Assembly (NCBI GenBank): GCA_964036195.1
Contig: OZ038450.1
Span: forward strand, 1,924,701 to 1,988,700
Direction of reading: 5' to 3'
Source: Sphaerolaimus hirsutus
Taxonomy: Eukaryota; Nematoda; Chromadorea; Monhysterida; Sphaerolaimidae
Length of the DNA stretch: 64,000 nucleotides
Part shown: positions 22,513-48,802 of the stretch, piece after piece
Layout: every line of letters starts with the position of its first letter
Position numbering within the stretch: position 1 is the stretch's first letter
Program-made: the position numbers and the translations under genes
Notes under the pieces: generated by a model
Database searches by the model: none
Seen by the model: the letters and a program-made list of their open reading frames with translations, nothing else
Told to the model about the DNA's origin: nothing

Positions 22513-22889
22513 TGACTACTTTTGTGCTCCATGAGCTTCTCACTCAGGCGCCCTGACTGCGCGCAGTACCTTCAGCCGACGCTCAGCCGGGTGGACCACC
22601 CTGTGTAACTCTGCGCAAAAAATGGGGCTTTCAACTGAAAAACTAGGCGCGTTTTCAGTTCGGTACGATCACCATGTTGAGCCCACGGCTCTACGAATGT
22701 CACTACCTGCCCGTGCACCACGAGCGGACTGCCTAGCACGTTCTGGACCTTGACGGAAAAGCGCCAAGTCCGGTCATAAGTGCTCTTCTCGATGTGTGAA
22801 AAACGTTCAGTGAGCGTGATTCTACTTGGACTTGGGATGGAGATTGGTTTCTGAGAACGTTTTCTAAAGTCTAAAACCTGGTCGCTTCA

Positions 22890-31015: not shown

Positions 31016-32091
31016 CCGTATTTCTCCGATCAAAGCACCCGCCGTTCAAAGCTCCCGGGGTGCTATGCTGTGCAATATGTTCCGTGTAAAGCACCAGAGT
31101 TGCGAAAGCGTATTTACGCTTACCTGAAATACCTGGGTAAATGGGTATTTATACTTACGCTTACTCTTACGCTTTCATAAAATACCCGTACGCTTTTTTA
31201 CGCTTTCCCGGCCAAAATACCCGTACGCTTTTTTACGCTTTCCCGGCCAAAATTGTAGGTAGAAATATGGCTAACTAATCATGCGTAAAAACGTAACGAC
31301 AATTTTGCGCAGACACTCCGACGACTCGAGAACGACCATGTGCGACCGAATGACGACCCGCGGTGCACAGGGAAGTCACAGTGAACGTGCGGTTCGCTGT
31401 GCACTGCAAATCCGCCAACGAAGCCGCAGCCCCAGGACGGTACGCCCGAATGGACACTACTGCGGCCATGAATTTATTAATTATTTCTTTTCCGTTAATT
31501 ACGTAATTACTTCCCGTGTGATGATAATTTTTTCATTTCATGTTTCATTAATTAAGCTAATTAGGTTACCCGCATTTTTTTGTTAAGTTAATTAAGTGAT
31601 TTCTTTCGTTTTTTTTGAATTGCATTTCCCAATATGTACTTTCGAATGTTATGATTTTTAGGTTTTATCAAATTTACATTTTAACCAAAAGGGTGCAGTG
31701 TCTGGGAATGGGTTAGAAAGGCTTTAATGTTTCTAGCTAAGCTAAAAGGTGTTGACTCTGTTAAATGCTTAGCCGCCCCGATAGATAACATTCAGAAAAT
31801 TCCCCGACCAAGTGCATTTTTATTTAGGACTAGGTAATGGGTGGAAAAGTGGCAAACGGCAATTATTGTCGGCACGCAACTGCAAGGCACATGCAGAGCA
31901 CAGTTTACAGTGAAGAGCACAGCAGTGCCAATTAATTATTCCCATCACCCAGGGTGATTGGTGAACTCACAAGTGCTAGTGTCTTGTGGCGTGTGTTCAG
32001 GCCCGAAGTTTCCAACCCTTACCCGGCAATGCGATAACCTTGAACAACCCCCGCCAATGAGCGTTCTTTCTGTGGCCTTGGTCGGGCGCGC

Positions 32092-32099
32092 TATAAAAA
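32092..32099 (+). promoter_or_regulatory. LTR TATA box
   Basis: TATAAAAA about 35 bp after a CCAAT motif (32054-32058). The identical box is at 47956 in the 3' LTR. A second AT-rich box (32450-32455) is less likely. Confidence 0.6.
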
Positions 32100-32540
32100 T
32101 ATTTTCCACCTAAAGGGGCGCAGGTTGATAACACGTGTCACACCACCTGCTCTCGACTGTACCGTAACCTCTGAATAGAAACCCAGTTCCCGACACTCAC
32201 CTACGAGATAAATTGTATTTTAATTACGTCATTGGTAATTACAGTTACTTTACGCTTGGTTTGACCCATATTTTACCCGCTTTATTTAATTAGATAATTT
32301 TCCCGCATTTGATTAATTTACTTGTGCCTTGTACGTTATGTTTACAGTTTTCCAGTGATCATTGATTACGCCTTATTAATTCGCTTATTATGGTTAATTG
32401 TTGTGTCTTTGATTTAGTATTCATTTCGTTTATGGTAGATTTTGGTGATTATAAAACGCGCTGATTTTACATTTTTTCACCCACTAGAGGCTATACGACT
32501 CACTTGAGCTATTGTGAAATTGACTCTGACTACATCGCTA

Positions 32541-32546
32541 AATAAA
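32541..32546 (+). promoter_or_regulatory. LTR polyadenylation signal
   Basis: AATAAA about 450 bp downstream of the TATA box, repeated at 48405-48410 in the 3' LTR, where it would end the genomic RNA. Confidence 0.5.
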
Positions 32547-32936
32547 GTTCCCGTGAAACCAACTTGGTCCCCCTGAAGCATACTAACTGCTTGAATTTTA
32601 ATTTGAATTTTATTAATTTCGGCTTTTCATTAATTACGGCTTTTTAACAATTAATCGAAGTAAACCGCCGGCAGCAGTTACGAAAGGGATTGGTAAGTTG
32701 CCGTGTCCGTCCTCAGGAACTGTCAGGACCCCAAGGGGTACTGGCGCCGTTCCTGATTTGCGTGTAAACATCCCCGTACCATAAAACCAATTATTTATTT
32801 AATTAAGCACGCAAGTGGAAGCGCAAAGGGACCGGAATTTGCAATTCTCTGCCGCAGCAAAATTCGACGAGTGGCGTATTTTTGTGGTAAAAACGGAAAA
32901 TAGTAAAATTAGTAAAAACGTAAAATATCTGACAAC

Positions 32937-32954
32937 TGGTAGCGTAGCGAGTGG
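32937..32954 (+). promoter_or_regulatory. Candidate primer-binding site
   Basis: TGGTAGCGTAGCGAGTGG begins two bases after the 5' LTR, the usual PBS position. Only the first eight bases are compatible with a tRNA acceptor end that I recall (Leu-like); the tRNA is not identified. Confidence 0.45.
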
Positions 32955-33049
32955 TTTCCTAAGCAAGCCATAAAGTTTTCTGTCTGGGGCGCCTGATCAA
33001 CGCCTCTACAAAAAACGGCTTCACGGATAACGAGTCACCCCAAAGGGAA

Positions 33050-36000
33050 TTGAGATCGAGGGGGCCAGCAAGCTTACAAGGGGACACCATAGAACAAGTT
33101 TGGCACGCTGCATTGGAGAAGCAAAAACAAGCACGAAGGCGCGCGCGACAACAGAAGGCTGGGCAAGAAGTGGACGCACAACTTGCTGCAGCTGAGAGTC
33201 AAGCAGGAGACAGTGAGTCGAACGATTCGGTTAACCCTGAAACAGAAGCGCCGGAAGCGCTAGAGGAGAGTGAAAGTCAACGCTGGTCTGGACAGACAGC
33301 TGAGGACACCCCGGTAATTAGGTTATCAACGGTTGAAGGTGCAGGGCCTGCGCCAGACAGTTTCAGTCAGTGGAAAACGCCAGCTGTACCGACAGCGGCA
33401 CGGCAGCTAACGTCCAGCGCAGAAGCTGAAGAAGCGCCTGGGACAAGCAGACAAACTGCAGGAAAGGAAGCAGGTAAGACAGGTAAGTGGTCTAAGCTTC
33501 GGAGGACATTGGGTTGGAGCGCGGGCAGCTCATCCATATCGCCTGGAGTGCGATCGGGTTCTGAAGTCGGTTCAGACGGATACGTTGGTGACAGCGAGCC
33601 TCTAGGGCAGCCGTCGATTCAACGTGATTATCCTGTGATTGCAGCTGAGCTTGGAGCTACTGCAGATCAATTTCCCGTGATTGAAAATACCGTAGAGGAA
33701 TTATTGGAGACAGCGGCGCAGAGTGGAGACACTTCCCCGGCGCTGCAGTTAAGCCCCCCGAAGAGCACTTCGACGCCGAGAGACGTGTCAGGCAACAGCA
33801 GTCGGAATTTATCGAGCGACCAGTCGAGATCGCAGAGCGCAACTGCAAAGGCTAGACGCCAGTTAATTAAGACCGAATTTTCAAGTAACCCCCCCGTGAT
33901 AATTATTAGCGGTCCCGCTAGCAGAATGACAAACAATGGCGCAAACCAGACGGCGGCCCCGGCACTGGAAGACAAATACGCGAATGTCAATAATGCTAAT
34001 TTAATTTACCAAGCTACCATAATGGACCTGGACCCGGTGCAAACAACGCCAACCTGTGCACAATGGACACCTAAAAAGGCATGTGCAGCTGCAAAGAAAT
34101 GGGCAAACATGATGAGTCAGGCGAGACCGGTTGGTGCTTTCTCACAGAATGGTGAACCAGGGGATTTGCGTATGGTGGCGCTAATTAAAACTGCTATGAA
34201 TTTATGGGGAAGTGACCCAGTCAATGAGGTACCTAGGGTGGAACATTACTTGAGGGAATTTGAAGAGCACCACAGCTTACATGGCGATGATATAGTTGAC
34301 CTGACGACGGCGTACCAGCAGCATAATCAAGCCCTACAAAATCAAAATGCGACGCTGGGAGGAAATTCACCGGCCAGTGGCCAGCAGCCAATAGTGCTGA
34401 CCAATGGTCAAGCAGCGCCTTTACAGTCATCAACGGTACCAGCGGCGCCCCCGTCGGCAGCTGGAACGAACCAGGTGAGAACTGTTACGCAGCGGCGCGC
34501 TCGATCCCGTTCGCCAGCATCCTCCAGGAGCTCGTCGGCTACATCTGAAGTGGCGCGGCCCACAGACCCGGGACAAAATTGGCAATTAGAGCAGAGTAAT
34601 GCGGCAGTCATCACAGCCTTAGCACAACAATGTGGATATTTTCGCGGCAAGCCAAATGAGGGTTTCAGGGACTGGAGAAGGAGCTGGGACACGGTATGTG
34701 ATGCGCTGCGCATAAAATTACAGGAGCGGAAGCCGCTGGTGAAATTGTTTCTGAAGGGCAGTGCCAGAGCCATTTTCAACACGCGGTACAGAGAATTGCG
34801 CGACCTGAACTACAAGGACATGATGCAAGCACTGGAAAAGTTCTATGAAAATCCGAATGACAAACATCATGCACAGAGAGAGATTTTTGAGACGCGACAG
34901 GGCGCAGATGAGTCGGTACTGGAATGGGCGGTACGTTTGGAAAAGTTGATAAAACGCGCCTATCCCGGCATGGGTCATGAAAAACGAGGTGACACATGCA
35001 TGATAAAATTTCATGGAGGGCTGAGAAATGAAATTCGGCGCAATGTACCTGTCACGGCGTCTATCACTTGGAAAGAGATGGTTGACAACGCACGCGCACA
35101 AGAGAGCTTTCTGGAAGCAGAACAGAGCCAGAATAAGGGAGAAAAATCCAAACAGGATGTGGTTGCCAGCGCTACAGACAAGGTAATGGACAGGTTGATG
35201 GCGTTAAACATGCCCGCCATGGCTGGACTGCCGTCCCAGGCCGACAAGACGTTAGAGACAATGGAACAGAAAATGACTGAGAGTGTTGCCAAATTCGACT
35301 CTGTGCACCAAGAGATAGCGAAGAAATTAGCGCAACTGGGCGCGTTGGAAGGTAAACTTTTGGGATTGAATAGGGACCCCCCTAAATTGCCCCCACGAAA
35401 ATTTGACAAAGGATGTTGGGAATGTGGCTCTGAAGAGCATATCAGATATGAGTGCCCCAAACTAACCCCAGAACAAAGGGAACAGTATTTCAAAAGGAGC
35501 CGCGGCGGCGGAGCATCCAGAGGAAATGGACGTGGGCGCGGCGGAGGACAACGTGGTGGCTATCAGGGAAATAATCAAGCCCAAGCGATGCAGCCAGGTA
35601 TGGTGCCCATGCAATACGCATATCCGCAGTGGCAACCAGCGCAGCCGATGCCGGTACAACCAGCGCAGACGGTACAGAGGGCTGGCGATATGAACATGCA
35701 ACCGCAAATGATGGCTTATCAAACGCCGCCAGCTAACTGGATGGCTATGGGACCGGATGGGCGCATGCAACAATATAACATGCAACCGGTACAGGTAAGT
35801 AACCCCCACGTAGAGTCGCTGAACCCCACGCGAGTGTCCAGTACGACTGGAATGACCATGCATGTGCGCGAAGATGATCGCTGCATGATGATACGTCCCG
35901 TTAATAAATTAATCCCTGTGATGCAAGGCTTGGAATTAGAGGATGAGGAACCTGACGAACTGGTTCCAGAGTCACCCGAAGAGCAGCAGCGCACTACTGG

Positions 36001-39000
36001 AATGCATGTGCTCGCGCAGGAGCGGGAATTCTGGATCAAACCGTGGGCATACATGCGAACTGAAAAAGGTTACTTGTTTCGAACTACTTGGCTGGCCTTT
36101 CTATGCAGGATTGGAATGCATGATTTGAGAGAAACGGACTGTACGTTGTGGCCTAATTGCCCTGCAGACGACCACTCGGACACGCTGACTGAGGTGCCCT
36201 TGGACGTGCTCATGAATATCAGTCTGGACCCGTTTTTGTACGCCACGCCGGCCGCCCTGCCGCCGCGTACTGGCTCCAGCAACCAGATAGACAGGTATAT
36301 GGGTTTTCTGTCTACTGAGGAAGGGGTGCGCCCCGCGCCGCGCGCATATTCAGAACCCCCCTACATGCCCCAGGTCGCACAGTCGCTGTTTTTTGTGTTG
36401 GCAATTGGATTAATTATAATGGGATTAGCCTTACTACCGGGCGCGGGCGCGACTACCATGCCCTCGTTTCCATTGTTATGCAGTGACTTGACGGATCACT
36501 ACGATTTATACACGTACCCCCCCCTACCAAATTGCACGGCCATTGTTGACACTACGGCGTCATTAGAACGGCCACGAAAATTGACACTGACAATATACAA
36601 GCGAAACATGGTAGAATATCGCGCGGCAGCGCACAGGTGTGTGGCCTCTACCCGAACGGCAAGGACGTATCAGAACTTCTGGGGCGACGTAACGCTGGAA
36701 ACATTTGATTCCAACCCCCGAGCTGTGGGCGCCGCTGAGTGCGAAGGCATGATTAAATATCATAAATGCAACAATGGGCCCATGACCCCTGTAAGAGATC
36801 TGGACAACGCATGGGACACCCAATACCCCACCAATGTTAGCTACTCAGGACATGGATTGTACTGTTGCAAATGGGTGAGTGAAACGACGCCACACTGTGG
36901 GCTGTTTCGAGGGGAAGTACGAATGAGATATGGAGCCAACACCATGCAAAGCACGCTGGGTGAGGTTAGTAAGTGCAATTACGAAATGGGCGCATGCACG
37001 CTAGAGGACGGCAGCCAATTAACATGGAAACCGAACCCGAAGGCGGAATGCCCTTATGAAAAATGGCGTGAAATGCATGGACGCATTAGACAGGACATCT
37101 GGCTAGCCGATGATCATACACTATCACTGTCCTTCAGAGCACATGAAGAGGTTGAGTCATGCGGCATTAAATTATGGAAATCGGACCAGGATATTGTCGT
37201 GGCGCCATTTGAGAAGGCAGTGATTCGAAGCGTCAGACAAAAACGAGCGCAAGGTCGACCCACGCTGGGAATAGTGAGCGCAGGCCAATTAGCAGCCAGC
37301 ATGCAGGCGGTATACGAAACAGCAGAACAAACCATGCGCGCACAGGCCGTAGCCACCTGCAAGAATGTGCAACACTTCCAAGAATTTGTGCGCCTGGCTA
37401 TGAGCGAACACGCAACTACGACAGCCCGATGGTACATGAATGATAACGAAATAATTGCCAAACCCGCGCCGGACGGATTTTTGGTTCACAAATGTTTTGC
37501 GGTAAAAACATACGAGATCATGAAAGAGAAGAAGTCTCCAGAATGCTACGAAACAGTACCTGTGCAAGTTAGTGTACACGGGCAGAATGTGACGTTGCAC
37601 ATGAATAGGTTGACAAACATTTTGCATTTTCAAGCGATCCCGGGCTCATGCACCAATGCGCACAATCGTGTGGTAATGTTAAATGGACAGTGGTACAAAT
37701 ATCTACCGGAAGTCGGCGGCCTGGAACATTTACCTATGTATAACACACACAGTTTCCCGCAGAAATGGCAACAGGAAAAAGTCAGGGATGTGCATCATCA
37801 GATTTTTGCCGCCACGACTATGTACAACTTGTCAGAATTATTGCCGACGACCACCCTGAATGACGTATGGCATGCATATTCAATCGTGCGGCAAATTACG
37901 CAGGGGGCGGAGCCGAGAGTGGAATCACACATGCAAAGACATCGAACCTTGGCAAAATCGGTATTAGCGCTGGGATGGTGGGATTTTGACACCTGGCGCA
38001 CCTGGCTACAAGTATGGATCTATCTGATATGTGCACTGGTCACCATGCAGTATTTACTAGCCGCGCTCATGGCTGCAGCGCCGGAAACGGCCGTGACGTT
38101 GGTGAACAGGGCAAAGGAAAAAATCAAAAGGCGACCAAAGACAGAAGAAAAGTCCAATATCATTGTCGAATTGGCTGAGGACCGCCCTAGCGAACAGGTA
38201 AAGGTAAGAACGGTAATTAACCCGTGCGTGGGAATGCCAAGTGGCATGCCCGCACTCACGGGCGCGCGTCGTTTTCCCGCTATACAATACAGTATCAACA
38301 GAAAATGCGATCTGGAAGAAGAATCAGTATGCATGATCACTTTCTCAACGGAAGAAAGGGATAACATACATCAAGTAGCCAATCGACGTGAAGAGATCGT
38401 GCATGTGTATTACAGCCCATCCATTACCATAACCATCGATGGGAGAGAATATCGAAGATGTCTACTGGACACAGGCGCCATGCGTTCATTATGTAACAGA
38501 GACGTGCTGATGCGACACAAGGAAAAGGCTACTAAGCATGACGAAGTTTCACCTATTGGAGCCCTTAGGTGTGCAGCAGACTCGAAACTTTTGGTATTGG
38601 GACAAATGGAAGTACCGGTAACCATGGGAAACCACACCTTCGGGATTGTGTTTCAGGCAGTGAACGGATTAGCTGGTGAAATTCTAATTGGTGCAGATGT
38701 TTTACGGCACATGGTAGTAGACCTACCCGCAAGGGAATTACGAATCCCTACGGCTAATGCGATCATTCCCTTTGATAACCCAGACCCGGAAGTGCAGCAG
38801 CGCAGAATTTACGCTATTGTGAATGAAAAAATAGAAATTCTGGCTAGACATGAAGCGCTAGTGGCGGCGAAATTATCTGCCCCCATGGATGAAAAGTTAT
38901 TTACGGTCATGGGATTGGATACGGTAGGCGAACGCTGTGGAGTTATGGCTGCTTCAGCGGCGTATGAAACCAGTGCCCCCGTGTTTCAGGTGAGATGTGC

Positions 39001-39646
39001 AAATGTACGAAATCAGCCCGTAGTGCTACAGGTAGGACAGCGCATTGCGGTGGTCGAACCAGTGGATTGCGTGCTGAAGGTGAAACCTGGAGACCCCCCC
39101 GCTGAATGGGTGAAGCAGTGCTATGACAGAGATGTGTGTCGACAGGTTCAAGCGACTGAACCTCCCCCCAAAGTAGCCGAAGACAAATTAGGACCCCCAC
39201 TGCAAGTTGCATGTCCGGATGGACACGTGATGGAATTCACCGTGCCAGAAACTTTGACGGACGAACGCAGAGAGGAACTGAAAAAGGTGATTTTGCAGTA
39301 CAAAGAAGCTTTTGCCCGACATAAGTATGACATCGGCTACAGCGAATTAGTGGACTACCGGTTGCAATTAGTGGACAAAAAGCCAATTGCATGCAGAATG
39401 TACCGGTTGAGTCTGGATGATCAGCAATACTTAGAAAATCATTTGAGATGCCTCATCGAGCACGACATTGTGGAACCCAGTACGAGCCCGTATTGTGCCC
39501 CCACGTTGGTGGTATCCAAACCGGATGGATCGAAGCGGATGGTAATTGATTACAGACGCCTGAACGCTGTTTTGCACGCTCCCCAATTCCCGTTACCCTG
39601 CTTAGATGAAACAGTTGAATCTTTATGTAGCTGCAAGTATTTTTAG
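33050..39646 (+). CDS. ORF1: Gag - envelope-like glycoprotein - protease - RT N-terminus
   Basis: A continuous frame of about 2200 codons. The start is uncertain: the frame is open from 32963 (stop TAA at 32960), 33050 is only a UUG, and the first AUG is at 33926 (residue 293). Residues ~1-500 are polar and low-complexity; ~520-700 look like a helical Gag capsid. A CCHC knuckle (C789, C792, H797, C802) is followed by an RGG-rich basic tail and a Met/Gln/Pro-rich linker. ~1109-1136 is a hydrophobic segment with a signal-peptidase-like GAGA end. ~1137-1650 is a Cys-rich ectodomain. ~1651-1677 is a second membrane segment. An aspartic protease has DTGA at D1807. RT starts at ~2095 (KPDGSKRMVIDYRRLN). 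The frame ends in a TAG at a T run inside RT and continues in ORF2. Processing by the element's own protease is inferred. Confidence 0.85.
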   Translation: MRSRGPASLQGDTIEQVWHAALEKQKQARRRARQQKAGQEVDAQLAAAESQAGDSESNDSVNPETEAPEALEESESQRWSGQTAEDTPVIRLSTVEGAGPAPDSFSQWKTPAVPTAARQLTSSAEAEEAPGTSRQTAGKEAGKTGKWSKLRRTLGWSAGSSSISPGVRSGSEVGSDGYVGDSEPLGQPSIQRDYPVIAAELGATADQFPVIENTVEELLETAAQSGDTSPALQLSPPKSTSTPRDVSGNSSRNLSSDQSRSQSATAKARRQLIKTEFSSNPPVIIISGPASRMTNNGANQTAAPALEDKYANVNNANLIYQATIMDLDPVQTTPTCAQWTPKKACAAAKKWANMMSQARPVGAFSQNGEPGDLRMVALIKTAMNLWGSDPVNEVPRVEHYLREFEEHHSLHGDDIVDLTTAYQQHNQALQNQNATLGGNSPASGQQPIVLTNGQAAPLQSSTVPAAPPSAAGTNQVRTVTQRRARSRSPASSRSSSATSEVARPTDPGQNWQLEQSNAAVITALAQQCGYFRGKPNEGFRDWRRSWDTVCDALRIKLQERKPLVKLFLKGSARAIFNTRYRELRDLNYKDMMQALEKFYENPNDKHHAQREIFETRQGADESVLEWAVRLEKLIKRAYPGMGHEKRGDTCMIKFHGGLRNEIRRNVPVTASITWKEMVDNARAQESFLEAEQSQNKGEKSKQDVVASATDKVMDRLMALNMPAMAGLPSQADKTLETMEQKMTESVAKFDSVHQEIAKKLAQLGALEGKLLGLNRDPPKLPPRKFDKGCWECGSEEHIRYECPKLTPEQREQYFKRSRGGGASRGNGRGRGGGQRGGYQGNNQAQAMQPGMVPMQYAYPQWQPAQPMPVQPAQTVQRAGDMNMQPQMMAYQTPPANWMAMGPDGRMQQYNMQPVQVSNPHVESLNPTRVSSTTGMTMHVREDDRCMMIRPVNKLIPVMQGLELEDEEPDELVPESPEEQQRTTGMHVLAQEREFWIKPWAYMRTEKGYLFRTTWLAFLCRIGMHDLRETDCTLWPNCPADDHSDTLTEVPLDVLMNISLDPFLYATPAALPPRTGSSNQIDRYMGFLSTEEGVRPAPRAYSEPPYMPQVAQSLFFVLAIGLIIMGLALLPGAGATTMPSFPLLCSDLTDHYDLYTYPPLPNCTAIVDTTASLERPRKLTLTIYKRNMVEYRAAAHRCVASTRTARTYQNFWGDVTLETFDSNPRAVGAAECEGMIKYHKCNNGPMTPVRDLDNAWDTQYPTNVSYSGHGLYCCKWVSETTPHCGLFRGEVRMRYGANTMQSTLGEVSKCNYEMGACTLEDGSQLTWKPNPKAECPYEKWREMHGRIRQDIWLADDHTLSLSFRAHEEVESCGIKLWKSDQDIVVAPFEKAVIRSVRQKRAQGRPTLGIVSAGQLAASMQAVYETAEQTMRAQAVATCKNVQHFQEFVRLAMSEHATTTARWYMNDNEIIAKPAPDGFLVHKCFAVKTYEIMKEKKSPECYETVPVQVSVHGQNVTLHMNRLTNILHFQAIPGSCTNAHNRVVMLNGQWYKYLPEVGGLEHLPMYNTHSFPQKWQQEKVRDVHHQIFAATTMYNLSELLPTTTLNDVWHAYSIVRQITQGAEPRVESHMQRHRTLAKSVLALGWWDFDTWRTWLQVWIYLICALVTMQYLLAALMAAAPETAVTLVNRAKEKIKRRPKTEEKSNIIVELAEDRPSEQVKVRTVINPCVGMPSGMPALTGARRFPAIQYSINRKCDLEEESVCMITFSTEERDNIHQVANRREEIVHVYYSPSITITIDGREYRRCLLDTGAMRSLCNRDVLMRHKEKATKHDEVSPIGALRCAADSKLLVLGQMEVPVTMGNHTFGIVFQAVNGLAGEILIGADVLRHMVVDLPARELRIPTANAIIPFDNPDPEVQQRRIYAIVNEKIEILARHEALVAAKLSAPMDEKLFTVMGLDTVGERCGVMAASAAYETSAPVFQVRCANVRNQPVVLQVGQRIAVVEPVDCVLKVKPGDPPAEWVKQCYDRDVCRQVQATEPPPKVAEDKLGPPLQVACPDGHVMEFTVPETLTDERREELKKVILQYKEAFARHKYDIGYSELVDYRLQLVDKKPIACRMYRLSLDDQQYLENHLRCLIEHDIVEPSTSPYCAPTLVVSKPDGSKRMVIDYRRLNAVLHAPQFPLPCLDETVESLCSCKYF
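36374..38085 (+). other. Envelope-like glycoprotein domain within ORF1
   Basis: Residues ~1109-1678 of ORF1 have type-I membrane glycoprotein layout: signal-like hydrophobic segment, long Cys-rich ectodomain, membrane anchor (WIYLICALVTMQYLLAA) and a basic cytoplasmic tail. N-glycosylation sequons are seen (NCT, NVS, NVT, NLS), and a furin-like RQKR at 1396-1399 could split it into two subunits, as in many fusion proteins. The family is not identified; relation to errantiviral, chuviral or other glycoproteins is untested. It lies between Gag and protease in one open frame, whereas env normally follows pol. Splice-donor-like CAG|GTAAGT (35795) and AAG|GTAAGA (38204) bracket it, so differential splicing is possible. 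Confidence 0.65.
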
Positions 39647-42353
39647 CAGTGCCGATATAAATCAAGCTTTCTATAACATTGCTTTGCATCCAGATGATCG
39701 ACACATCACGTCATTTAGAAATGTTTTTGGACAATTTCAACTGAAACGTTTACCCATGGGATTAAAATGCTCACCTAGTTTAGCGCAGCGCTGTTTTGAA
39801 TTAGCTATGGCCGGTTTAATACATCGAAATGTATTATTATACATCGACGATTTACTGATTTATAGTGCAACCTGGGAAACACATTTATATGACATAGGAC
39901 AGGTGTTAGAAAGACTAATTAGGAATAATTTCAAAATTAGTCCGAAAAAGTGTTTTTTCGCACGCGTCACAGCTGTACGCTTTCTAGGATTTATGATTGG
40001 CCGTGACGGCGTGTGCGTACCAGATGATAAACGGCACATAATTCAGGACTGGCCGGTACCCACTACCGTAAAAGAGGTAAAAGGATTTCTGGGAGCTATC
40101 GGTTTTTTCAGACGCATGATTCACAGATGCGCAGAGCTAGCTGTACCCTTGTCAAATCTCACGCGTACGGGACCAAGAGAAAATTACAATAGCGACACCC
40201 CGGTGGATTTGACATCGAAACCCAAGGCACTGGAAGCTTTCCATAAGCTCAAGGAAGCATTGTTAGGAAGCCCATGTCTGCAATTTCCCGATCCTAAACG
40301 TATGTTTATAATTATCACGGACGCCTCTAAAATTGCTGTTGCAGGCGTGCTAGCACAACGAGCAGAGGACAGGAAAATACTACATGCATGTGCCTTTTAT
40401 AGCCGGAAGTTAGGTGCAACCCAAAGCAAATGGCCAGCGATTTCCCTGGAAGCGTGTGCAATCTACGAAAGCATACGTAATTGGCATTGTTATCTGGCGG
40501 GACGGCCCTTTGAAGTCTGGACTGACGCCAAGAGTATTTCGTGGGTAAAGAATCCTAATTTAGAGACTACCCCGCACGCCATGCTGCACAAGTTCGCTTT
40601 AGCAATTACGCCGTACCAAATCACGTTCAAACACTTGAGGGGAAAAAGCAATGAACTAGCTGATGCATTGTCTAGAAGACAAGACGCACCAGTGGTATTT
40701 GACGAGAAAAAGGACCTGGATGAGGCTTTTGAGCAGTTTGCACAAGTTACGTGCCGTGAAATCGCTATCCCGCACGATAAGCAGGTTACGGTAGCTGCGG
40801 CGAACAGGGCAGCGTACCAGCCAATCAGCGTAAATGAGGAGGCGGAGTTTCTGCGACCAATCAGCGACCGGACGTGCGGGCGAAAAGAGGCGGAGTCACC
40901 CGGGCTGCGAGAGCGGCAGCGGAATGCGGAAGCACCTGGAACTGGAACAATGGCTGGTGGTTCAGGCGCCGGAAATGGAGTTGTTTCGGGTCTAACGAGT
41001 GCAGCTAAGCGCAGTACAATCATGGCACTACCTCCAATGACTTCGGTTGACAAATTGAAGCGACTACAAGCAGAAGAACCATACATAGCCACAACTATAG
41101 AAGTGTGTCGCGCAGATAATTTTTACAGCGCCGCGCCGTATTTTATTGACCAATACGGTTTGTTACGTCGCCAAGCGGGAACGTCCCAGATACCAGGTAT
41201 ACAGTTATACGACCCCGTATGTATCCCATCGGAATTAGTCCCATTCGTATTAGAATTAGCGCACAATCACCCCACGGCGGGCCATTTAGGAATAATAAAA
41301 ACATTTGAAAGATTACAGGAATTCGCGTGGTTCCCAGGAATGCGGCCAGAAAGTGCGCGCTGGGTTGCCACCTGCCCTTCGTGCAACGCCAAGAAAGGTC
41401 TCAGAGCGGCAATGCGAACTCAAATGGTGTGCCGCCAGGTAGCCAAAAGGCCAGGTGATGTGATAGCAGTAGACGCAATAGGACCTTTACTAACCACGAA
41501 ACGCAGAAACCGACATGTGTTAGTATTTGTTGATCAGTGCACACGTTTTGGAATTGCTGTGCCCGTTCCCGACATAAAACAAGACACAGTATCATTTGCA
41601 TTTCTGTTGCACATTTTGCCTATATTTAGTGTGCCGGCCATTATACTCAGTGATAACGCCCCTAGCTTTACCGAGGGCACTTTTGCCAAGCTTCTACAAT
41701 ATTTGAACGCGACCCAACATACATCATTTGCGCACACCCCCAAGAGCAACGGAATGGTGGAACGTAGGAATGGTGTTCTGATGGAAATAGTATCACACTA
41801 CGTAAATCGTACACATGACGATTGGGACATACATTTAGGCGCCGCTGTACACGCGTACAATACATCGAAACACCCTTCCTTGCAAACCACCCCCTATGCG
41901 TTGCTATTTGGCAAGCCTGCTGCGTCCATGTGGGAGCGTATGATCGAGCCTCCCCCTGACAACGAGGCATTGCCCTCATTGCCGCATAAGCGCGCTCTTA
42001 TAAATGAATTAGGCGCGCGTCTGACCACAGCACGCGAAGCAGCGCACACCGCTTTAGCAAAGGCGCAGCAAAAAGAGCAATTTTACGCCAATCGCCGTGC
42101 GCGCCGATTGAATGTGCAACGCGGGCAAGCGGTACGCGTATACACGCCGCGTATTACTCAGTTGACGGGCCCTAGTAAGAAATTCGCGCCTCGCTTTATC
42201 GGCCCGTATGAGTGCATTGATTATGCCCACCCATTAGTGACTTTATTCAACAATATTAATAAGAAAATTTATGTAGTTCATGCAGATCGTTGCAAGGCAA
42301 CCAGTGAATATTTAATTCCCCCTTCTTACAGTGAATTATACGGCGACAACTAA
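39606..42353 (+). CDS. ORF2: RT (remainder) - RNase H - integrase
   Basis: Frame +1 relative to ORF1, overlapping it at 39606-39646; the AUG at 39606 is not a natural start. RT continues from the DINQAF block through the LPMGLKCSP and YIDD (79-82) motifs and the LGF primer-grip region. RNase H has its D (ITDAS ~239), E (SLEACAIYES ~282), D (WTDAKS ~306) and a final D in ELADAL. After a low-complexity spacer, integrase shows an HHCC zinc region (from ~552), catalytic D623, D683 and E719 with 35 residues between the last two, and a GPYECID module near 865. All catalytic residues are present. The order RT-RNase H-integrase with the GPY tail fits Ty3/gypsy. Confidence 0.9.
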   Translation: MKQLNLYVAASIFSSADINQAFYNIALHPDDRHITSFRNVFGQFQLKRLPMGLKCSPSLAQRCFELAMAGLIHRNVLLYIDDLLIYSATWETHLYDIGQVLERLIRNNFKISPKKCFFARVTAVRFLGFMIGRDGVCVPDDKRHIIQDWPVPTTVKEVKGFLGAIGFFRRMIHRCAELAVPLSNLTRTGPRENYNSDTPVDLTSKPKALEAFHKLKEALLGSPCLQFPDPKRMFIIITDASKIAVAGVLAQRAEDRKILHACAFYSRKLGATQSKWPAISLEACAIYESIRNWHCYLAGRPFEVWTDAKSISWVKNPNLETTPHAMLHKFALAITPYQITFKHLRGKSNELADALSRRQDAPVVFDEKKDLDEAFEQFAQVTCREIAIPHDKQVTVAAANRAAYQPISVNEEAEFLRPISDRTCGRKEAESPGLRERQRNAEAPGTGTMAGGSGAGNGVVSGLTSAAKRSTIMALPPMTSVDKLKRLQAEEPYIATTIEVCRADNFYSAAPYFIDQYGLLRRQAGTSQIPGIQLYDPVCIPSELVPFVLELAHNHPTAGHLGIIKTFERLQEFAWFPGMRPESARWVATCPSCNAKKGLRAAMRTQMVCRQVAKRPGDVIAVDAIGPLLTTKRRNRHVLVFVDQCTRFGIAVPVPDIKQDTVSFAFLLHILPIFSVPAIILSDNAPSFTEGTFAKLLQYLNATQHTSFAHTPKSNGMVERRNGVLMEIVSHYVNRTHDDWDIHLGAAVHAYNTSKHPSLQTTPYALLFGKPAASMWERMIEPPPDNEALPSLPHKRALINELGARLTTAREAAHTALAKAQQKEQFYANRRARRLNVQRGQAVRVYTPRITQLTGPSKKFAPRFIGPYECIDYAHPLVTLFNNINKKIYVVHADRCKATSEYLIPPSYSELYGDN
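39640..39646 (+). other. Frame change inside RT at a T5 run
   Basis: ORF1 reaches TTT TAG at 39641-39646, while conserved RT sequence carries on in the +1 frame from the same point. Either a one-base insertion in a homopolymer (mutation or assembly error) or an unusual programmed shift. The usual place for retroelement frameshifting is before protease or RT, not inside the RT fingers/palm, so a lesion is more likely. Confidence 0.75.
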
Positions 42354-42579
42354 AATTGATTAATTAGCTGATTAATTAGCCGTTACGACCATCGCCGTCG
42401 CGTCAAACAACACGGAACCAGGTATAACAGGTATGAAGTGTGTGTGAAAGTGTGCGTGTGTTTTTAGGAAGCTCGTGCACCCCTTTTGCCCACGGGCAAC
42501 TGGACCGCACGAGTTCTTATTACTTTCCCCGTTCATAAAACTTCGTAATTAATTATTTTATCACATTGTTATAATTATA
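42354..42579 (+). promoter_or_regulatory. ORF3 leader with acceptor-like site and hairpin
   Basis: No coding sequence. GTGTGTTTTTAG (ending 42467) resembles a splice acceptor that could join the LTR donor at 32693 to make a subgenomic ORF3 mRNA. Immediately after it, CTCGTGC (42472-42478) and GCACGAG (42507-42513) can pair, enclosing an inner TTGCCC/GGGCAA stem. The ORF3 AUG follows in a good context (ATAATGG). Confidence 0.45.
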
Positions 42580-45500
42580 ATGGCTTCGGCCTCTCGCAAA
42601 CGCCCATTTGAAGGTGCAGACGCCCCGCCCATTAAATCCAAGGAGACAAATACACATGGTGCCTGCGGCGGCGGAACCATCCCCCCGCGACAACTTTACC
42701 GCGCGCAGCAGATGCAAAATGGACCGGAAATCTACCCCAGCAGAGGGAAATTCGAAGGTTGGGTAGATAGGGTGTATATTGACTCGGGCGCCGACGGGCA
42801 TGTTGAGTATCAGTGCCATGTGAGAATTTCTGAGCAGACGATGGCGATACTCAGCGAAAACGAGCAGTGGGTGAATGCGGATGAAGCCTATCCGTATTTT
42901 TATTATTCGAACAAGCGGGCCAAGGCGGCTAGGGACAAACGGACCACCCAGCTGGTGGATTTGTGCGCGAGAATTCAGAAACAACACCCCTCGATGTTCC
43001 TGCCCCTGGTGCGCCACGGGATGCGTTTCTCGGCGACCGCAATCGCACAAAAAATAGAAAATCCCCGGTACTGGGAGTTTACCGGCGCCGCAATATGGGG
43101 TAATCAGACAAAGTGCCCCTTAAACGTTGCCGCCCCCGTGGTCGTGAGTACGCAGGGCACGCGGCGCGTCACTCAAGCGGCACGTACATTGACGCGCGGC
43201 GACACTTCCGGCTACCAGCCCTACACGAGCGACTGGAAAACGGCGCGGCTGCGAGCGGCCTTCACGCCGTCGAATTACACAAATCTGGAACCGCTGGGCG
43301 CGGCGGAGCGGGGCGATGCCGGGCCGGAAAAGTTGGTCATCTTACACAGAGAATATGTAAGTGACAGTAGAGTGGAAAATTTGAGTGCGGGACAGTTGGG
43401 GTTGGCCCACGTCGAGTATCACGACTTGAATGATCTGGACGTGTTTGGCGACGAATTCTACGGCCATGTGTACGGGCTGCAGGTCGCCACGGCCGAGGAC
43501 ATCAGCACAACGGGCATCCAGCCAGACACAGAGAACCGAGACAACATGAACGCGTTTCTCAGGTATAAATTGGGCATTTTAGCAGCGGCCCATTGCTATA
43601 ACGAGTCATTTTTGCGGTTTCGGGCGAAACGCGCAACGGATGTGTGCGCACATGTGTCCTGGGAGCACACGCCGCAGGGCACTGCATGCGATATTATGGT
43701 GCGCCGCCCGGACCCAGAAGAATTGCAAGCTGACACTTTCGAAGGACCAGAAGAGCAGCGCGTGCGTTTGCTGGAGCAGGTGAACACGCAGACACAGCTG
43801 TTGAACCAGGCGACGCCCATGTCGGTGTTGAGCTTGGTGCTGGCCAGACCGGACGAAGACAAACCAGCGGCGGGCAGCCCCAATCTATCAGTCAGAATTA
43901 CCAGCGTGGAATCAGAGCCAACCACTACAATGCTGCGTGCGAAGTTGGACATGGCGGCGTCGCAATCAGCACTGCCCCGAACCCTGGAGAGTGGAAGATA
44001 CATGGTGCGCGGCTCGAACGACTCGCCCAATTACGACCGAACCATGCGGTCGCTGCAAGCCGCCCTGAACAAAGCGCCGGTCGGCTGGGTGCCAAAAGTG
44101 GTTCAGGGGTCAAAAGTACTCACCCTGGAGGCGCAAATCCAATTAGCTGTGATATTGAATTTGCGTCTGCTGGATGACGAAACTGACTGGGCACTCATTA
44201 GCCGCGAGGCTAATGAGTTGTACGAATCATTGTTCAGAGGAAAAAACGAACAAATGATTCAGGCCAAATTAGGTGAGTTTTTGCCGCAGCAGGGGCAGGT
44301 AGAAGTTTTAGGAGCTGTGATCACAGCCGTGCGAATGCGCAAACCCCTTTTGATTATGTGTGACTCGCCTTTCGGGTCCGGGAAGACGACCACACAAAAT
44401 CAACTGGCGTATGTGTGTTCACGCGGCTATAACTATTATAACTCAAGACCCAGGGTGCGCGCGGGCTCCGACTTGCCATCGGACAAGCAGCCGAACGCCA
44501 AATACCATTCGACGCTCATCACGTGCACGGTCAACTCGGCAGCTGACGAAGGCGCGCGCAGGGCCCTGACCAATCTGAATAAATTAGGGCAGCGGGATAT
44601 TTTTGGGGCTTTAGAAGTTTTATTGCGGGAGCGCGCGAAATGGACCGCTATGGCTGATACGCCATTTTCTGAAATGCAAAAACTGGAGGGTTTTGAAGAA
44701 TTTTTGAAATTAAGAGCGGCATTTCCGGTGCGCGTTTTGAGTCCCATGTGGGAAACTGACCCCACTTATAACACCACCCCCGCGACCCAATTGCCAACCC
44801 TGCACACCCTAGCACAGCGAACCGGCCACAACATCGTCCGCCTCAGCCCCGAATGGACGGCAGCGCTGGAAAAGTACGACGGCGCCAAGAAGGACTACGA
44901 ACTGGTGGACGAAATCATCAACAACTGCACGGACGACGCCGTCATACGCGCGCAGCTGACCGAACAGGTGCCCTTTCTCACCGCCGACGATGGAGACGAG
45001 CAGCCATTCGATGACTTCGAGGCAGGCGTGGCGGGCGCCCGGGCTGGTGAGGCTAGTTTAGCTGATCAGGGATTTTGGGGTAAGGTGCTACGTAGGGCGC
45101 TGTCTAAATATGTCAGGGCTACGGTCAGGCTGCACCGGGTGTTCTTGGAGGTGGTGCAGCCCGGTCAAATCCATGTCACTTTAGACTCCGCCCACGACGC
45201 CCGTATAAAAAGTGTGACTGCGTGTGCGGTAATTATTGACAAAGCGTCTTTGGCGTCTGACGCTGCAGTAATTAGCGTGGTTCAGGCGGCTCAGCTCCCA
45301 GTGAACGGCATGCTACTTCTATTTGGAGACAGTAAACAATTGACGCGTATGATTCGCGTGCAAGACTGGGTGGAGCCTGTCCTGAAACCCGACCCCACCC
45401 TCATTGATAGGCTCACACAATACCAACTATGCCCCGTGGTTCACTTGGAAACAGTGTTCCGCGGGCATCGCCAGCTCATTCAGGCCAACTCAGTGGCGGC

Positions 45501-46551
45501 GTACAACGGACTGCTACGCGCCTACAACGACACCGCAGCGCACGGCGCCACCATGTTGCCCGCGCCTGGCGACTTCGAGGATGGCGTCATGCTGTCGTCG
45601 ACGTTGGTGCACCAGGGCTGCGAATCAAAAGAGGGCATGTCCATTATCAACAAGAAGGAGCTGCGCATCATCCTGCACCTGTACGACTACCTCTTGGCCA
45701 CGGTGAAAGAAGATCCCACCCTGCCCTGGGCAGATCTCACAGATCCCGCTAGTTTGCTAATTGTGTGTTTTTATGCGGCGCAGGCGCGCGCCCTAATTAG
45801 TCGACTAGTAGCCCATACAGAACACGACGCGGCCTACTGGGCCACCCGCGTAATTACTGCCGACAAAGCACAGGCCCGGGAAGCGGAAGTGGTCATCATT
45901 TCCTGCGTGCGCGGCAGCCCGCCAACCGACTCCGCCCAGCTGGATGCCGATCCCAAGAAGGCGTACGGTAGAGTTGGATTTGTAGCGGAGTTGCCCCGGG
46001 GAAACGTAGCCACCTCCCGCGCCAAATGTGTGCGCATCGTGGTGGCCAACGCCGAGACCATGTTGTGGTCAACCTTTTTCCACCGGTTTCTGACGGTCGA
46101 GCACAAAGCCGACCGGATTTACTCTTACGAGTCAGGCCAAATTTGGGGAAACGTGTTGGGATTTTGGCCTCCGGAATGGCGCCCGCGGGCCGACTTGAAA
46201 GAACTAGTCGGACCGGACAGATACCCGGCCCTCGAAGAAGAACTGCAGGCGGAATGTTTGTCTGACATTGAAACCGCCACCGCGGGCTCTGACTCCTCCG
46301 CAGACGCGCGGGAGGAGGGTGTGCCGGTGTTGGAGGAAGTGGTGCCCGTTGTCGAACCAGTTTACCGCCCTAATGAAGAATATTCCCCCATTAGCAACGA
46401 CATGGCGGCCATGGCACTGCAGAACGTAGCCGAGCCCCCCTCGCCGCCGCCCGAGCACCACGACGCGGTCGAGGCCATCCCACTGCCACCGGAGGAGGCT
46501 CCAGCGCAACAGGTAGAACACCACATGGAAAATGGTAATTGTGAAAATTGA
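42580..46551 (+). CDS. ORF3: Upf1-like superfamily 1 helicase (1323 aa)
   Basis: A clean ATG-to-TGA frame. Residues 1-590 match nothing I recognise. From ~590 the SF1 motifs appear in order: motif I FGSGKTT (G599-K602), motif II IIDKAS (D887), motif III FGDSKQL (916-921), a LETVFRGH block (~954) as in the RecD/Upf1 motif IV region, motif V around EAEVVIIS, and motif VI RGNVATSRAK (1140-1149, R1147). This arrangement is typical of Upf1/DNA2-type helicases. The Walker B acid normally read as DE is DK here (K888), which should impair ATP hydrolysis unless compensated. The last ~100 residues are acidic and proline-rich. The GC-rich codon use matches ORF1, so it belongs to the element. Its role is unknown; unwinding or remodelling element RNA or escaping host RNA surveillance are possibilities only. 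Confidence 0.8.
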   Translation: MASASRKRPFEGADAPPIKSKETNTHGACGGGTIPPRQLYRAQQMQNGPEIYPSRGKFEGWVDRVYIDSGADGHVEYQCHVRISEQTMAILSENEQWVNADEAYPYFYYSNKRAKAARDKRTTQLVDLCARIQKQHPSMFLPLVRHGMRFSATAIAQKIENPRYWEFTGAAIWGNQTKCPLNVAAPVVVSTQGTRRVTQAARTLTRGDTSGYQPYTSDWKTARLRAAFTPSNYTNLEPLGAAERGDAGPEKLVILHREYVSDSRVENLSAGQLGLAHVEYHDLNDLDVFGDEFYGHVYGLQVATAEDISTTGIQPDTENRDNMNAFLRYKLGILAAAHCYNESFLRFRAKRATDVCAHVSWEHTPQGTACDIMVRRPDPEELQADTFEGPEEQRVRLLEQVNTQTQLLNQATPMSVLSLVLARPDEDKPAAGSPNLSVRITSVESEPTTTMLRAKLDMAASQSALPRTLESGRYMVRGSNDSPNYDRTMRSLQAALNKAPVGWVPKVVQGSKVLTLEAQIQLAVILNLRLLDDETDWALISREANELYESLFRGKNEQMIQAKLGEFLPQQGQVEVLGAVITAVRMRKPLLIMCDSPFGSGKTTTQNQLAYVCSRGYNYYNSRPRVRAGSDLPSDKQPNAKYHSTLITCTVNSAADEGARRALTNLNKLGQRDIFGALEVLLRERAKWTAMADTPFSEMQKLEGFEEFLKLRAAFPVRVLSPMWETDPTYNTTPATQLPTLHTLAQRTGHNIVRLSPEWTAALEKYDGAKKDYELVDEIINNCTDDAVIRAQLTEQVPFLTADDGDEQPFDDFEAGVAGARAGEASLADQGFWGKVLRRALSKYVRATVRLHRVFLEVVQPGQIHVTLDSAHDARIKSVTACAVIIDKASLASDAAVISVVQAAQLPVNGMLLLFGDSKQLTRMIRVQDWVEPVLKPDPTLIDRLTQYQLCPVVHLETVFRGHRQLIQANSVAAYNGLLRAYNDTAAHGATMLPAPGDFEDGVMLSSTLVHQGCESKEGMSIINKKELRIILHLYDYLLATVKEDPTLPWADLTDPASLLIVCFYAAQARALISRLVAHTEHDAAYWATRVITADKAQAREAEVVIISCVRGSPPTDSAQLDADPKKAYGRVGFVAELPRGNVATSRAKCVRIVVANAETMLWSTFFHRFLTVEHKADRIYSYESGQIWGNVLGFWPPEWRPRADLKELVGPDRYPALEEELQAECLSDIETATAGSDSSADAREEGVPVLEEVVPVVEPVYRPNEEYSPISNDMAAMALQNVAEPPSPPPEHHDAVEAIPLPPEEAPAQQVEHHMENGNCEN

Positions 46552-46676
46552 TACGAAACAATTTTTGTCAAAAAACCAGTTATCAAAGTTTCAATGTAAT
46601 GATTCATGCACAACTTCTTGTCATCAGGAGAAACAGACAACCTTGTAACAAAAACCAGTAATTAAAAACATACTTG

Positions 46677-46806
46677 TTAATATTCCATGAAAACAATTAG
46701 AAAATCTTGTCGACGATCAATTTTCACACGCACGGACTGCGACATGTCGGTCGAGCAGGTAACTTGAATGTTGATTCCAAACTGCCCATCCAACAGCGGC
46801 ACGATG
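46677..46806 (-). CDS. Antisense gene, exon 2
   Basis: Second exon of the minus-strand gene described at 46871-47028. Starts after a TTATTTCACAG acceptor; a TACTAAT branch-point-like motif lies about 15 nt upstream (plus 46823-46829). Forty-three codons ending FMEY and TAA at plus 46677-46679. Predicted beta-rich, no membrane segment. Confidence 0.6.
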
Positions 46807-46870
46807 CTGTGAAATAACACAGATTAGTAGTCTGATTAATTAGTTTCCAAAAGAAAAAACTTTTTCTCAC

Positions 46871-47028
46871 ATCGAGCCCTGAGCGGGAACCAAAATTTCG
46901 AAGTTTCGAGCACAAAAAGCCGGCACGGCAGAAAGCTGATGCCATAATTCGAATGAAGACGAGCCATATTTGCACCCCCAGGGCATGTGACTGCCACAGC
47001 CGTCCACCGAAAAATGCAGAGAAGGCAT
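46871..47028 (-). CDS. Antisense spliced gene in the LTR element, exon 1
   Basis: On the minus strand, ATG at 47028 starts 52 codons plus two bases ending at a GTGAGA donor. The intron is 64 nt (46807-46870) with GT-AG ends, a TACTAAT branch motif and a pyrimidine-rich acceptor. Retention gives an immediate TGA, while splicing keeps frame and adds 43 codons (95 residues total). The product begins MPSLHFSVDGCG, has several Cys and Trp, and is not recognised. The frame is open further upstream to a TAA at 47101-47103, so another exon or start is possible. It lies between ORF3 and the 3' LTR, tail-to-tail with the helicase ORF. An antisense LTR promoter is inferred, not seen. Confidence 0.6.
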
Positions 47029-47117
47029 GATTTTTGAATAACCAAAAAACGGCGCAAACACTTTTTCTGAACATGTCGTTTTTAGCCCGGAGGTAAAAAA
47101 TTAATGGCTGGTGGGAT

Positions 47118-48798
47118 TGTAGGTAGAAATATGGCTAACTAATCATGCGTAAAAACGTAACGACAATTTTGCGCAGACACTCCGACGACTCGAGAACGAC
47201 CATGTGCGACCGAATGACGACCCGCGGTGCACAGGGAAGTCACAGTGAACGTGCGGTTCGCTGTGCACTGCAAATCCGCCAACGAAGCCGCAGCCCCAGG
47301 ACGGTACACCCGAATGGACACTACTGCGGCCATGAATTTATTAATTATTTCTTTTCCGTTAATTACGTAATTACTTCCCGTGTGATGATAATTTTTTCAT
47401 TTCATGTTTCATTAATTAAGCTAATTAGGTTACCCGCATTTTTTTGTTAAGTTAATTAAGTGATTTCTTTCGTTTTTTTTTAATTGCATTTCCCAATATG
47501 TACTTTCGAATGTTATGATTTTTAGGTTTTATCAAATTTACATTTTAACCAAAAGGGTGCAGTGTCTGGGAATGGGTTAGAAAGGCTTTAATGTTTCTAG
47601 CTAAGCTAAAAGGTGTTGACTCTGTTAAATGCTTAGCCGCCCCGATAGATAACATTCAGAAAATTCCCCGACCAAGTGCATTTTTATTTAGGACTAGGTA
47701 ATGGGTGGAAAAGTGGCAAACGGCAATTATTGTCGGCACGCAACTGCAAGGCACATGCAGAGCACAGTTTACAGTGAAGAGCACAGCAGTGCCAATTAAT
47801 TATTCCCATCACCCAGGGTGATTGGTGAACTCACAAGTGCTAGTGTCTTGTGGCGTGTGTTCAGGCCCGAAGTTTCCAACCCTTACCCGGCAATGCGATA
47901 ACCTTGAACAACCCCCGCCAATGAGCGTTCTTTCTGTGGCCTTGGTCGGGCGCGCTATAAAAATATTTTCCACCTAAAGGGGCGCAGGTTGATAACACGT
48001 GTCACACCACCTGCTCTCGACTGTACCGTAACCTCTGAATAGAAACCCAGTTCCCGACACTCACCTACGAGATAAATTGTATTTTAATTACGTCATTGGT
48101 AATTACAGTTACTTTACGCTTGGTTTGACCCATATTTTACCCGCTTTATTTAATTAGATAATTTTCCCGCATTTGATTAATTTACTTGTGCCTTGTATGT
48201 TATGTTTACAGTTTTCCAGTGATCATTGATTACGCCTTATTAATTCGCTTATTATGGTTAATTGTTGTGTCTTTGATTTAGTATTCATTTCGTTTATGGT
48301 AGATTTTGGTGATTATAAAACGCGCTGATTTTACATTTTTTCACCCACTAGAGGCTATACGACTCACTTGAGCTATTGTGAAATTGACTCTGACTACATC
48401 GCTAAATAAAGTTCCCGTGAAACCAACTTGGTCCCCCTGAAGCATACTAACTGCTTGAATTTTAATTTGAATTTTATTAATTTCGGCTTTTCATTAATTA
48501 CGGCTTTTTAACAATTAATCGAAGTAAACCGCCGGCAGCAGTTACGAAAGGGATTGGTAAGTTGCCGTGTCCGTCCTCAGGAACTGTCAGGACCCCAAGG
48601 GGTACTGGCGCCGTTCCTGATTTGCGTGTAAACATCCCCGTACCATAAAACCAATTATTTATTTAATTAAGCACGCAAGTGGAAGCGCAAAGGGACCGGA
48701 ATTTGCAATTCTCTGCCGCAGCAAAATTCGACGAGTGGCGTATTTTTGTGGTAAAAACGGAAAATAGTAAAATTAGTAAAAACGTAAAATATCTGACA
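47118..48798 (+). repeat. 3' LTR
   Basis: Same length as the 5' LTR; differences seen by eye correspond to 5' LTR positions near 31443, 31617 and 32333. TATA at 47956, AATAAA at 48405. The bases before it (ggctggtggga) are a weak polypurine tract. Confidence 0.9.
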
Positions 48799-48802
48799 AA
48801 AT

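What the first reader, a model, noticed from the sequence alone, without database searches (positions are those of the whole stretch)
31254..48798. Giant LTR retroelement combining Gag, env-like protein, Pol and an SF1 helicase
A complete TSD-flanked element of 17.5 kb encodes a 1323-codon Upf1-like helicase in addition to gag, env-like and pol functions. I know of no standard Ty3/gypsy or retrovirus family with a helicase of this type. Codon use and position (between pol and 3' LTR) indicate it is part of the element.
Basis: partly seen in the sequence, partly recalled or inferred. Interest (0 to 1): 0.92.

Follow-up and report, generated by a model that had tools for sequence, protein, structure and literature searches.

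The report
Giant retroelement carrying its own helicase
A young, high-copy, 17.5-kb retrovirus-like element in an unidentified eukaryote's genome carries, besides its usual genes and a virus-type entry protein, a gene for a large helicase-like protein that evolution has kept intact, which is not a normal part of such elements.

Summary
Window 31254-48798 is a complete LTR element: 1681-bp LTRs with 3 differences, TG..CA ends, 4-bp TSD AAAT. It encodes Gag, an envelope-like fusion glycoprotein in frame between Gag and protease, RT-RNaseH-IN, and a separate 1323-codon ORF3 with an SF1 Upf1/IGHMBP2-type helicase domain. An integrase tag matches 188 places; of the 100 listed, 99 carry ORF3 sequence at the expected place. 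ORF3 is under strong purifying selection: pN/pS 0.03 in the helicase core, and 0.06 in 15 other copies with pooled synonymous divergence of 0.28. Of 20 further copies, 17 have matching TSDs. The ORF1/ORF2 switch lies inside RT, at UUU UAG C, the same in 21 of 21 copies. In-frame Env has a precedent in planarian Burro elements (PMC6431247); the helicase has none in the listings and passages I saw, which come from an open-licence library without Repbase. What the helicase does is inferred, not shown. The window copy's helicase motif II is altered; the seven other copies compared have the canonical motif. The host was not identified.

The parts
31250..31253 (.). Target site duplication, 5' copy (AAAT)
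   Evidence: Sequence
31254..32934 (+). 5' LTR, 1681 bp, TG..CA
   Evidence: first 300 bases
32937..32954 (+). Candidate primer binding site beginning TGG, 2 nt after the LTR; the tRNA was not identified
   Evidence: sequence; inference
33050..39646 (+). ORF1: Gag - Env - protease - N-terminal part of RT; frame open from 32963, first in-frame ATG at 33926
34739..34978 (+). Gag capsid-like domain (Retrotrans_gag/PNMA)
35411..35461 (+). CCHC zinc knuckle (below cut-off)
36386..36442 (+). Hydrophobic segment 1 (signal sequence/anchor before the Env ectodomain)
   Evidence: hydropathy; inference
36938..37714 (+). Envelope-like fusion glycoprotein, PF24664 Monjiviricetes_fusion; furin-like RQKR at residue 1396
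38024..38080 (+). Hydrophobic segment 2 (Env membrane anchor)
   Evidence: inference
38423..38710 (+). Aspartyl protease-like region (DTGA at 38468), profile matches below cut-off
39641..39647 (+). Shift site UUU UAG C: +1 change of frame inside RT, 38-nt overlap of the ORF1 and ORF2 frames
39606..42353 (+). ORF2: rest of RT, RNaseH, H2C2 and rve integrase, GPY motif
42580..46551 (+). ORF3: 1323-aa protein with an SF1 Upf1-like helicase domain (motif I at 44374, II at 45238, III at 45325, V at 45859, VI at 46009; motif assignments recalled); motif II altered in this copy
47118..48798 (+). 3' LTR, 1681 bp
48799..48802 (.). Target site duplication, 3' copy (AAAT)

Best explanation
It is a recently active giant Ty3/Gypsy-type retroelement, retrovirus-like in build, that has taken in two foreign modules: a mononegavirus-type fusion glycoprotein placed in frame between Gag and protease, and an SF1B-like helicase as a separate 3' gene. 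Proposed working: full-length RNA is translated into a Gag-Env-PR polyprotein. Two hydrophobic segments would thread Env across the membrane while Gag and Pol stay in the cytosol. A +1 shift at UUU UAG inside RT makes the lesser Gag-Env-Pol product. ORF3 is made as its own protein and works as an ATP-driven helicase on the element's own long RNA or cDNA. Shown: anatomy, copy number, TSDs, the conserved frame change, and purifying selection on ORF3. Inferred: membrane topology, frameshifting in cells, and the helicase's activity and substrate. I put the identification (an element-borne, selected helicase-type gene) at about 0.93, and 'acts on the element's own long RNA/cDNA' at about 0.45.
For: LTRs and TSD; domains; ORF3 profile hits AAA_12 8e-25, IGHMBP2-family helicase 3.3e-13 (below that model's cut-off), PDB '5'-3' RNA helicase-like protein' 4.4e-6 with copy L003. 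99 of 100 listed integrase-tag copies carry ORF3 sequence. pN/pS of ORF3 is 0.064 over 8 copies, core 0.033; syn 119.5 to non 29.5, binomial p 2.8e-47. In 15 copies not picked by ORF3 match, pooled pS is 0.276 and pN/pS 0.059. ORF2 0.043 in 21 copies and an ORF1 piece 0.026 in 18. Shift site the same in 21 of 21. In 12 of 19 relatives the match to the ORF1 tail runs to its last residue; in 10 of those 12 the ORF2 match begins at residue 9 or 10 (P0015 at 6, P0009 at 3), as a join at residue 14 requires. 98 of 148 scored copies have an open frame of at least 1310 codons at the helicase.
Against: One genome only. No relative of ORF3 among the 7993 best word-sharing candidates scored in each of two protein searches, nor in IMG/VR. 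No expression data. Motif I sits in a stretch that no profile covers, and the structure model was unusable (pLDDT 35.5). No stable RNA structure follows the shift site (z 0.06). Giant elements with no reported helicase exist (Burro, Ogre; passages of PMC6431247), so size alone does not require one. The 8 ORF3 copies were picked by best protein match, which lowers pN. In the ORF1 piece, 3 of 20 copies are interrupted.
Confidence: 0.8

Rival explanations
1. ORF3 is a counter-defence protein: a mimic of host Upf1/MOV10/ZNFX1-type helicases that shields element RNA from nonsense-mediated decay or small-RNA silencing. The unspliced RNA, with its first stop about 9 kb before the 3' end, would be a natural decay target.
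For: Closest profiles are Upf1-like; ORF1 stops at 39646, far from the 3' LTR; ORF3 is a separate protein, so need not enter particles. The decay logic is from general knowledge.
Against: In the core, selection is as strong as on RT/IN (0.033 in 8 copies; ORF2 0.070 in the same 8 copies, 0.043 in 21), with no sign of arms-race change; no direct test.
Confidence: 0.3
2. ORF3 is a passenger host gene transduced by chance and not needed.
For: Codon use of ORF3 differs from ORF2, which fits an outside origin.
Against: pN/pS of 0.03-0.06 across copies with synonymous divergence up to 0.47; ORF3 sequence in 99 of 100 listed copies.
Confidence: 0.03
3. The ORF1/ORF2 frame change is a disabling mutation inherited from one master copy, and the copies move in trans.
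For: All 21 copies share it.
Against: Both frames remain under strong purifying selection on either side of the site (0.026 and 0.043); the ORF1 piece is open in 17 of 20 copies despite length differences; the site has the form of a shifty stop (recalled).
Confidence: 0.12
4. Assembly or annotation artefact (a host helicase gene next to an element).
For: None found.
Against: ORF3 lies inside matching LTRs and TSDs and recurs with the same spacing at unlinked sites.
Confidence: 0.01

Closest known systems
Burro / GYPSM1 giant Gypsy-like retroelements of planarians (PMC6431247, passages)
   Same: Env in frame between gag and pol, similar to mononegavirus fusion glycoproteins; giant polyprotein; Gypsy-type pol
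   Different: Burro is over 30 kb, with BIR, ankyrin, BCL2-like, MATH and dUTPase motifs reported; none of these matched here at E 0.1. A midasin-like AAA ATPase region is reported for a Dugesia relative, but no helicase for Burro among the three 'helicase' places in that text. Sequence relationship not tested.
Bdelloid rotifer Vesta/Juno/TelKA elements with captured ORF3 (PMC5408684, passages)
   Same: Extra ORF3 downstream of pol, in part with a non-Env enzymatic function
   Different: Functions named in the passages are DEDDy exonuclease, GDSL esterase and env-like; the only 'helicase' in that text is in a reference title
Anakin, BEL/Pao element with a chuvirus glycoprotein (PMC7642597, passages)
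   Same: LTR element with an Env from a chuvirus, the virus group that PF24664 points to (link recalled)
   Different: BEL/Pao pol; the word helicase does not occur in that text
Orchid Ty3/Gypsy elements with an AlkB RNA demethylase (PMC9289625, search listing only; PMC12786077, passages)
   Same: Gypsy element that gained an RNA-modifying enzyme domain
   Different: Demethylase, not helicase; plants
Upf1-like SF1B helicases (UPF1, IGHMBP2, Sen1; group name recalled)
   Same: AAA_12 domain; motif-like strings in the usual order
   Different: No other domain recognised; 288 residues between motifs I and II, longer than I recall for UPF1; element-borne

Membership tests
Ty3/Gypsy (Metaviridae) | Order PR-RT-RNaseH-IN between LTRs | tested here: met
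   (PR below cut-off)
Ty3/Gypsy (Metaviridae) | TG..CA ends, 4-6 bp TSD | tested here: met
   4-bp TSD in window and 17 of 20 further copies
Ty3/Gypsy (Metaviridae) | Position in RT phylogeny | not tested
   No named reference set; the 19 protein hits have RT/RNaseH/IN-type domains, up to 34% identity
Burro-type giant elements | Env in frame between Gag and PR | tested here: met
   definition from PMC6431247
Burro-type giant elements | BIR/ankyrin/BCL2/dUTPase modules, over 30 kb | tested here: not met
   17.5 kb; no such Pfam match at E 0.1
Burro-type giant elements | Sequence homology to Burro | not testable with these tools
   No Burro sequence at hand
SF1B Upf1-like helicase | AAA_12 domain | tested here: met
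   E 8e-25, 88 bits against a cut-off of 27
SF1B Upf1-like helicase | AAA_11 domain | tested here: inconclusive
   Below cut-off and C-terminal part only: 7e-4 in L003 copy, 0.065 in the window copy
SF1B Upf1-like helicase | Motifs I-VI | tested here: inconclusive
   Motif-like strings in order (names recalled); motif II altered in window copy, canonical in 7 others; motif V diverged
SF1B Upf1-like helicase | 5'-3' ATP-driven unwinding | not testable with these tools
   -
Troyka | CG..CG ends, 3-bp TSD | tested here: not met
   TG..CA, 4 bp (definition)
Anakin (BEL/Pao) | BEL/Pao pol | tested here: not met
   Gypsy-type domain matches and a GPY motif (GPF/Y as a Gypsy mark from passages of PMC12440569)
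Retrovirus (infectious) | Particles or transfer between cells | not testable with these tools
   Only Env anatomy seen

The most novel reading that the evidence does not exclude
A reverse-transcribing lineage in which an SF1B helicase is an essential replication gene, an independent parallel to the Upf1-like helicase of large-genome nidoviruses (that parallel recalled, not tested), allowing or stabilising a 17.5-kb retroelement genome; combined with a membrane-spanning Gag-Env-Pol polyprotein and a +1 shifty stop inside RT.
Probability: 0.3. Interest if true: 0.92.

Novelty: new variant of a known kind. Interest (0 to 1): 0.78.

Why it matters
Retroelements and retroviruses are generally thought to lean on host helicases (recalled). 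A stable, selected, element-encoded SF1 helicase makes it testable whether long reverse-transcribed genomes need one, or whether the element is fighting RNA surveillance. The build also shows, next to Burro, a second giant element with env inside the Gag-Pol polyprotein, in a genome that seems to hold more of them.

Tried and rejected
Structure: AlphaFold2 of ORF3 residues 474-1207 without relatives gave pLDDT 35.5 and was not searched further. Relatives of ORF3 elsewhere: none found (each scoring 7993 candidates; IMG/VR); of Env in IMG/VR: none. PDB sequence search with Env gave only insignificant CD44 matches. RNA structure after the shift site: none beyond chance. The genome search with PF13086 and an ORF3 DNA tag did not complete. 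Rejected: passenger gene, assembly artefact, disabled frame (see rivals). An earlier count said 18 of 20 TSDs; the recount is 17 of 20. One search's ORF3 figures are void (three copies in the wrong orientation) and were redone.

Literature: nine full-text searches around the subject, seven of them with a helicase term (all but 25 and 63); I saw the listings (at most 25 papers each), not every paper that matched. Read in passages: PMC6431247, PMC5408684, PMC12440569 (also abstract and outline), PMC7642597, PMC11410931, PMC12786077, PMC7264820, PMC12220107. The S. mediterranea genome paper is not held. Repbase was not available.
Full report
Observation. The element fills window 31254-48798. Its two LTRs are 1681 bp with 3 differences, start TG and end CA, and are flanked by AAAT. 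The 5' flank is a 35-bp tandem repeat, 31179-31253. ORF1 (33050-39646), ORF2 (39606-42353) and ORF3 (42580-46551) are open. Pfam finds Gag capsid, a mononegavirus-class fusion glycoprotein just over its cut-off, RT, RNaseH and integrase, and AAA_12 in ORF3; protease is below cut-off but has DTGA.

A family, not a one-off. The ORF3 protein has 35 scored matches at 99-100% identity, out of 614 candidates. AAA_12 has 150 scored of 454 candidates. Of these I read 148 as this element's (97.8 bits or less, profile span 4 or 5 to 194) and two as host genes (146.6 and 177.7 bits, partial profile, one with stops inside); that reading is by eye. Of the 148, 98 lie in an open frame of at least 1310 codons. 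An integrase 58-mer matches 188 places with up to 3 mismatches, with no match to the reversed control; 100 are listed, all exact.

Is ORF3 constant? Of those 100, 83 pair with a listed AAA_12 on the same strand 2.6-5.1 kb away (start to start); 74 of these are in the two main spacing classes, one per strand. For the other 17, I fetched 601 bp at the expected junction. Sixteen contain ORF3 sequence at 86-99% identity: L071 has 236 nt and then ORF1 sequence, L082 reaches only 29 nt because the piece lies off, L075 and L084 show inner ORF3 sequence. L087 has the spacer only. Seen from the other side, of 105 listed AAA_12 on the same seven contigs, 22 have no listed integrase tag nearby; as 88 tags were not listed, this says little. 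Limits: the 100 are the first listed, on C1-C4, C6, C7 and C9; the other 88 were not examined; ORF3 sequence is not an intact gene.

Independent insertions. I took 20 of the 34 other places, from the top of that list and leaving out small contigs. Full 5' LTRs were found in 20 and 3' LTRs in 19. Seventeen have identical 4-bp flanks; one runs into N, one mismatches, and one lacks a 3' LTR in the fetched piece. LTR pairs differ at 0-8 sites, 4 of 19 pairs at none; one pair also has 4 gap positions. Between copies, 5' LTRs are 92.6-99.7% identical. So the family is young and diverse.

Selection. pN/pS: ORF2 0.043 (21 copies; 0.070 in the 8 used for ORF3); ORF1 38300-39643 0.026 (18 copies; c2, c9 and c10, interrupted there, were left out). 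ORF3: 0.064 in 8 copies; core 541-1200 0.033, N part 0.084, tail 0.205. Because those 8 were chosen by protein match, I repeated it on the 17 junction pieces, which were not: 15 could be aligned; pooled pS 0.276, pN 0.016, ratio 0.059, single copies up to pS 0.47; two had a stop and five had indels. So ORF3 has been kept as a protein for a long time. The stretch of ORF1 before its first ATG is constrained too (0.126 overall in 21 copies, one of which, c6, is open for only 132 codons).

Frame change. ORF1 ends inside RT, and the ORF2 frame opens 38 nt earlier. In 21 of 21 copies the sequence at the switch is the same, UAU UUU UAG C. The ORF1 side is interrupted further upstream in 3 of 20 copies. 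In 12 of the 19 relatives, the match to the ORF1 tail runs to its last residue; in 10 of those 12 the match to ORF2 begins at its residue 9 or 10 (P0015 at 6, P0009 at 3), with an overlap in the relative. This fits a +1 step at UUU UAG that joins ORF1's last residue to ORF2 residue 14 and gives a normal RT. A stop codon next to the slipping codon is as in antizyme-type +1 sites (recalled). No structured stimulator was seen.

Env. Two hydrophobic segments flank the glycoprotein, with RQKR and 4 N-glycosylation sequons in the stretch scanned. An even number of spans would leave Gag and Pol on the same side of the membrane; this is inference. Elsewhere in this genome, 68 scored matches (of 1557 candidates) to the same fusion-protein family lie in open frames of up to 6806 aa; 46 of 68 are at least 2000 aa, and none lies within 25 kb of the 148 listed ORF3-type helicases. 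That capped list did not bring up this element's own Env. A sampled 8.6-kb piece of one (L070) shows PR-RT-RNaseH-IN downstream of Env in one frame, and no helicase match in the 2139 residues seen; its RT-RNaseH region is 29% identical to ours over 347 residues. The host thus seems to carry several Burro-like families; I did not sort them.

Helicase. Best matches: AAA_12, IGHMBP2-family helicase (E 3.3e-13, below that model's cut-off), PDB 'RNA helicase-like protein' entries (4.4e-6), then UPF1 entries at 0.03-0.19. In the window copy, motif II departs from the canonical acidic pair; the seven other copies compared have it, and the AAA_11 match of the one scanned, L003, is better. So the window copy may be impaired in this one protein.

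Literature. Burro supplies the env precedent (PMC6431247, passages). In the listings of nine full-text searches (seven with a helicase term) and in the passages read I saw no LTR element with a helicase gene. The library holds open-licence papers only, and Repbase was not available, so earlier description cannot be excluded.

Verdict. A real, recently active, helicase-bearing giant Gypsy-type element; new variant of a known kind. The mechanism of the helicase is open: action on the element's own long RNA or cDNA, or defence against RNA surveillance, are the two live readings.

Noticed in passing
G000 outside the window, e.g. C1:17083501 (L070), C251:27319-50243: Other matches to the Monjiviricetes-type Env family in open frames up to 6806 aa, apparently further giant families (68 of 1557 candidates scored)
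   Followed up: partly
window 32963-33925: ORF1 is open and under purifying selection upstream of its first ATG, so translation may start at a non-AUG codon or after splicing
   Followed up: partly
window 41394-41844: Synonymous divergence among 21 copies falls from about 0.14-0.20 in most of RT/RNaseH to about 0.03 in the integrase core: recombination between subfamilies or a hidden RNA element
   Followed up: no
window 45238-45249: Helicase motif II altered in the window copy only, among 8 copies compared
   Followed up: yes
window 31179-31253: The 5' flank of the insertion is a 35-bp tandem repeat of about two copies
   Followed up: no
window 61180-62334 and 62600-64000, - strand: Two further RT fragments (RVT_1 matches below cut-off)
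   Followed up: no
window 18433-22515, - strand: Several long open frames without Pfam match (four scanned), part of the stretch GC-rich; perhaps a degraded element
   Followed up: no
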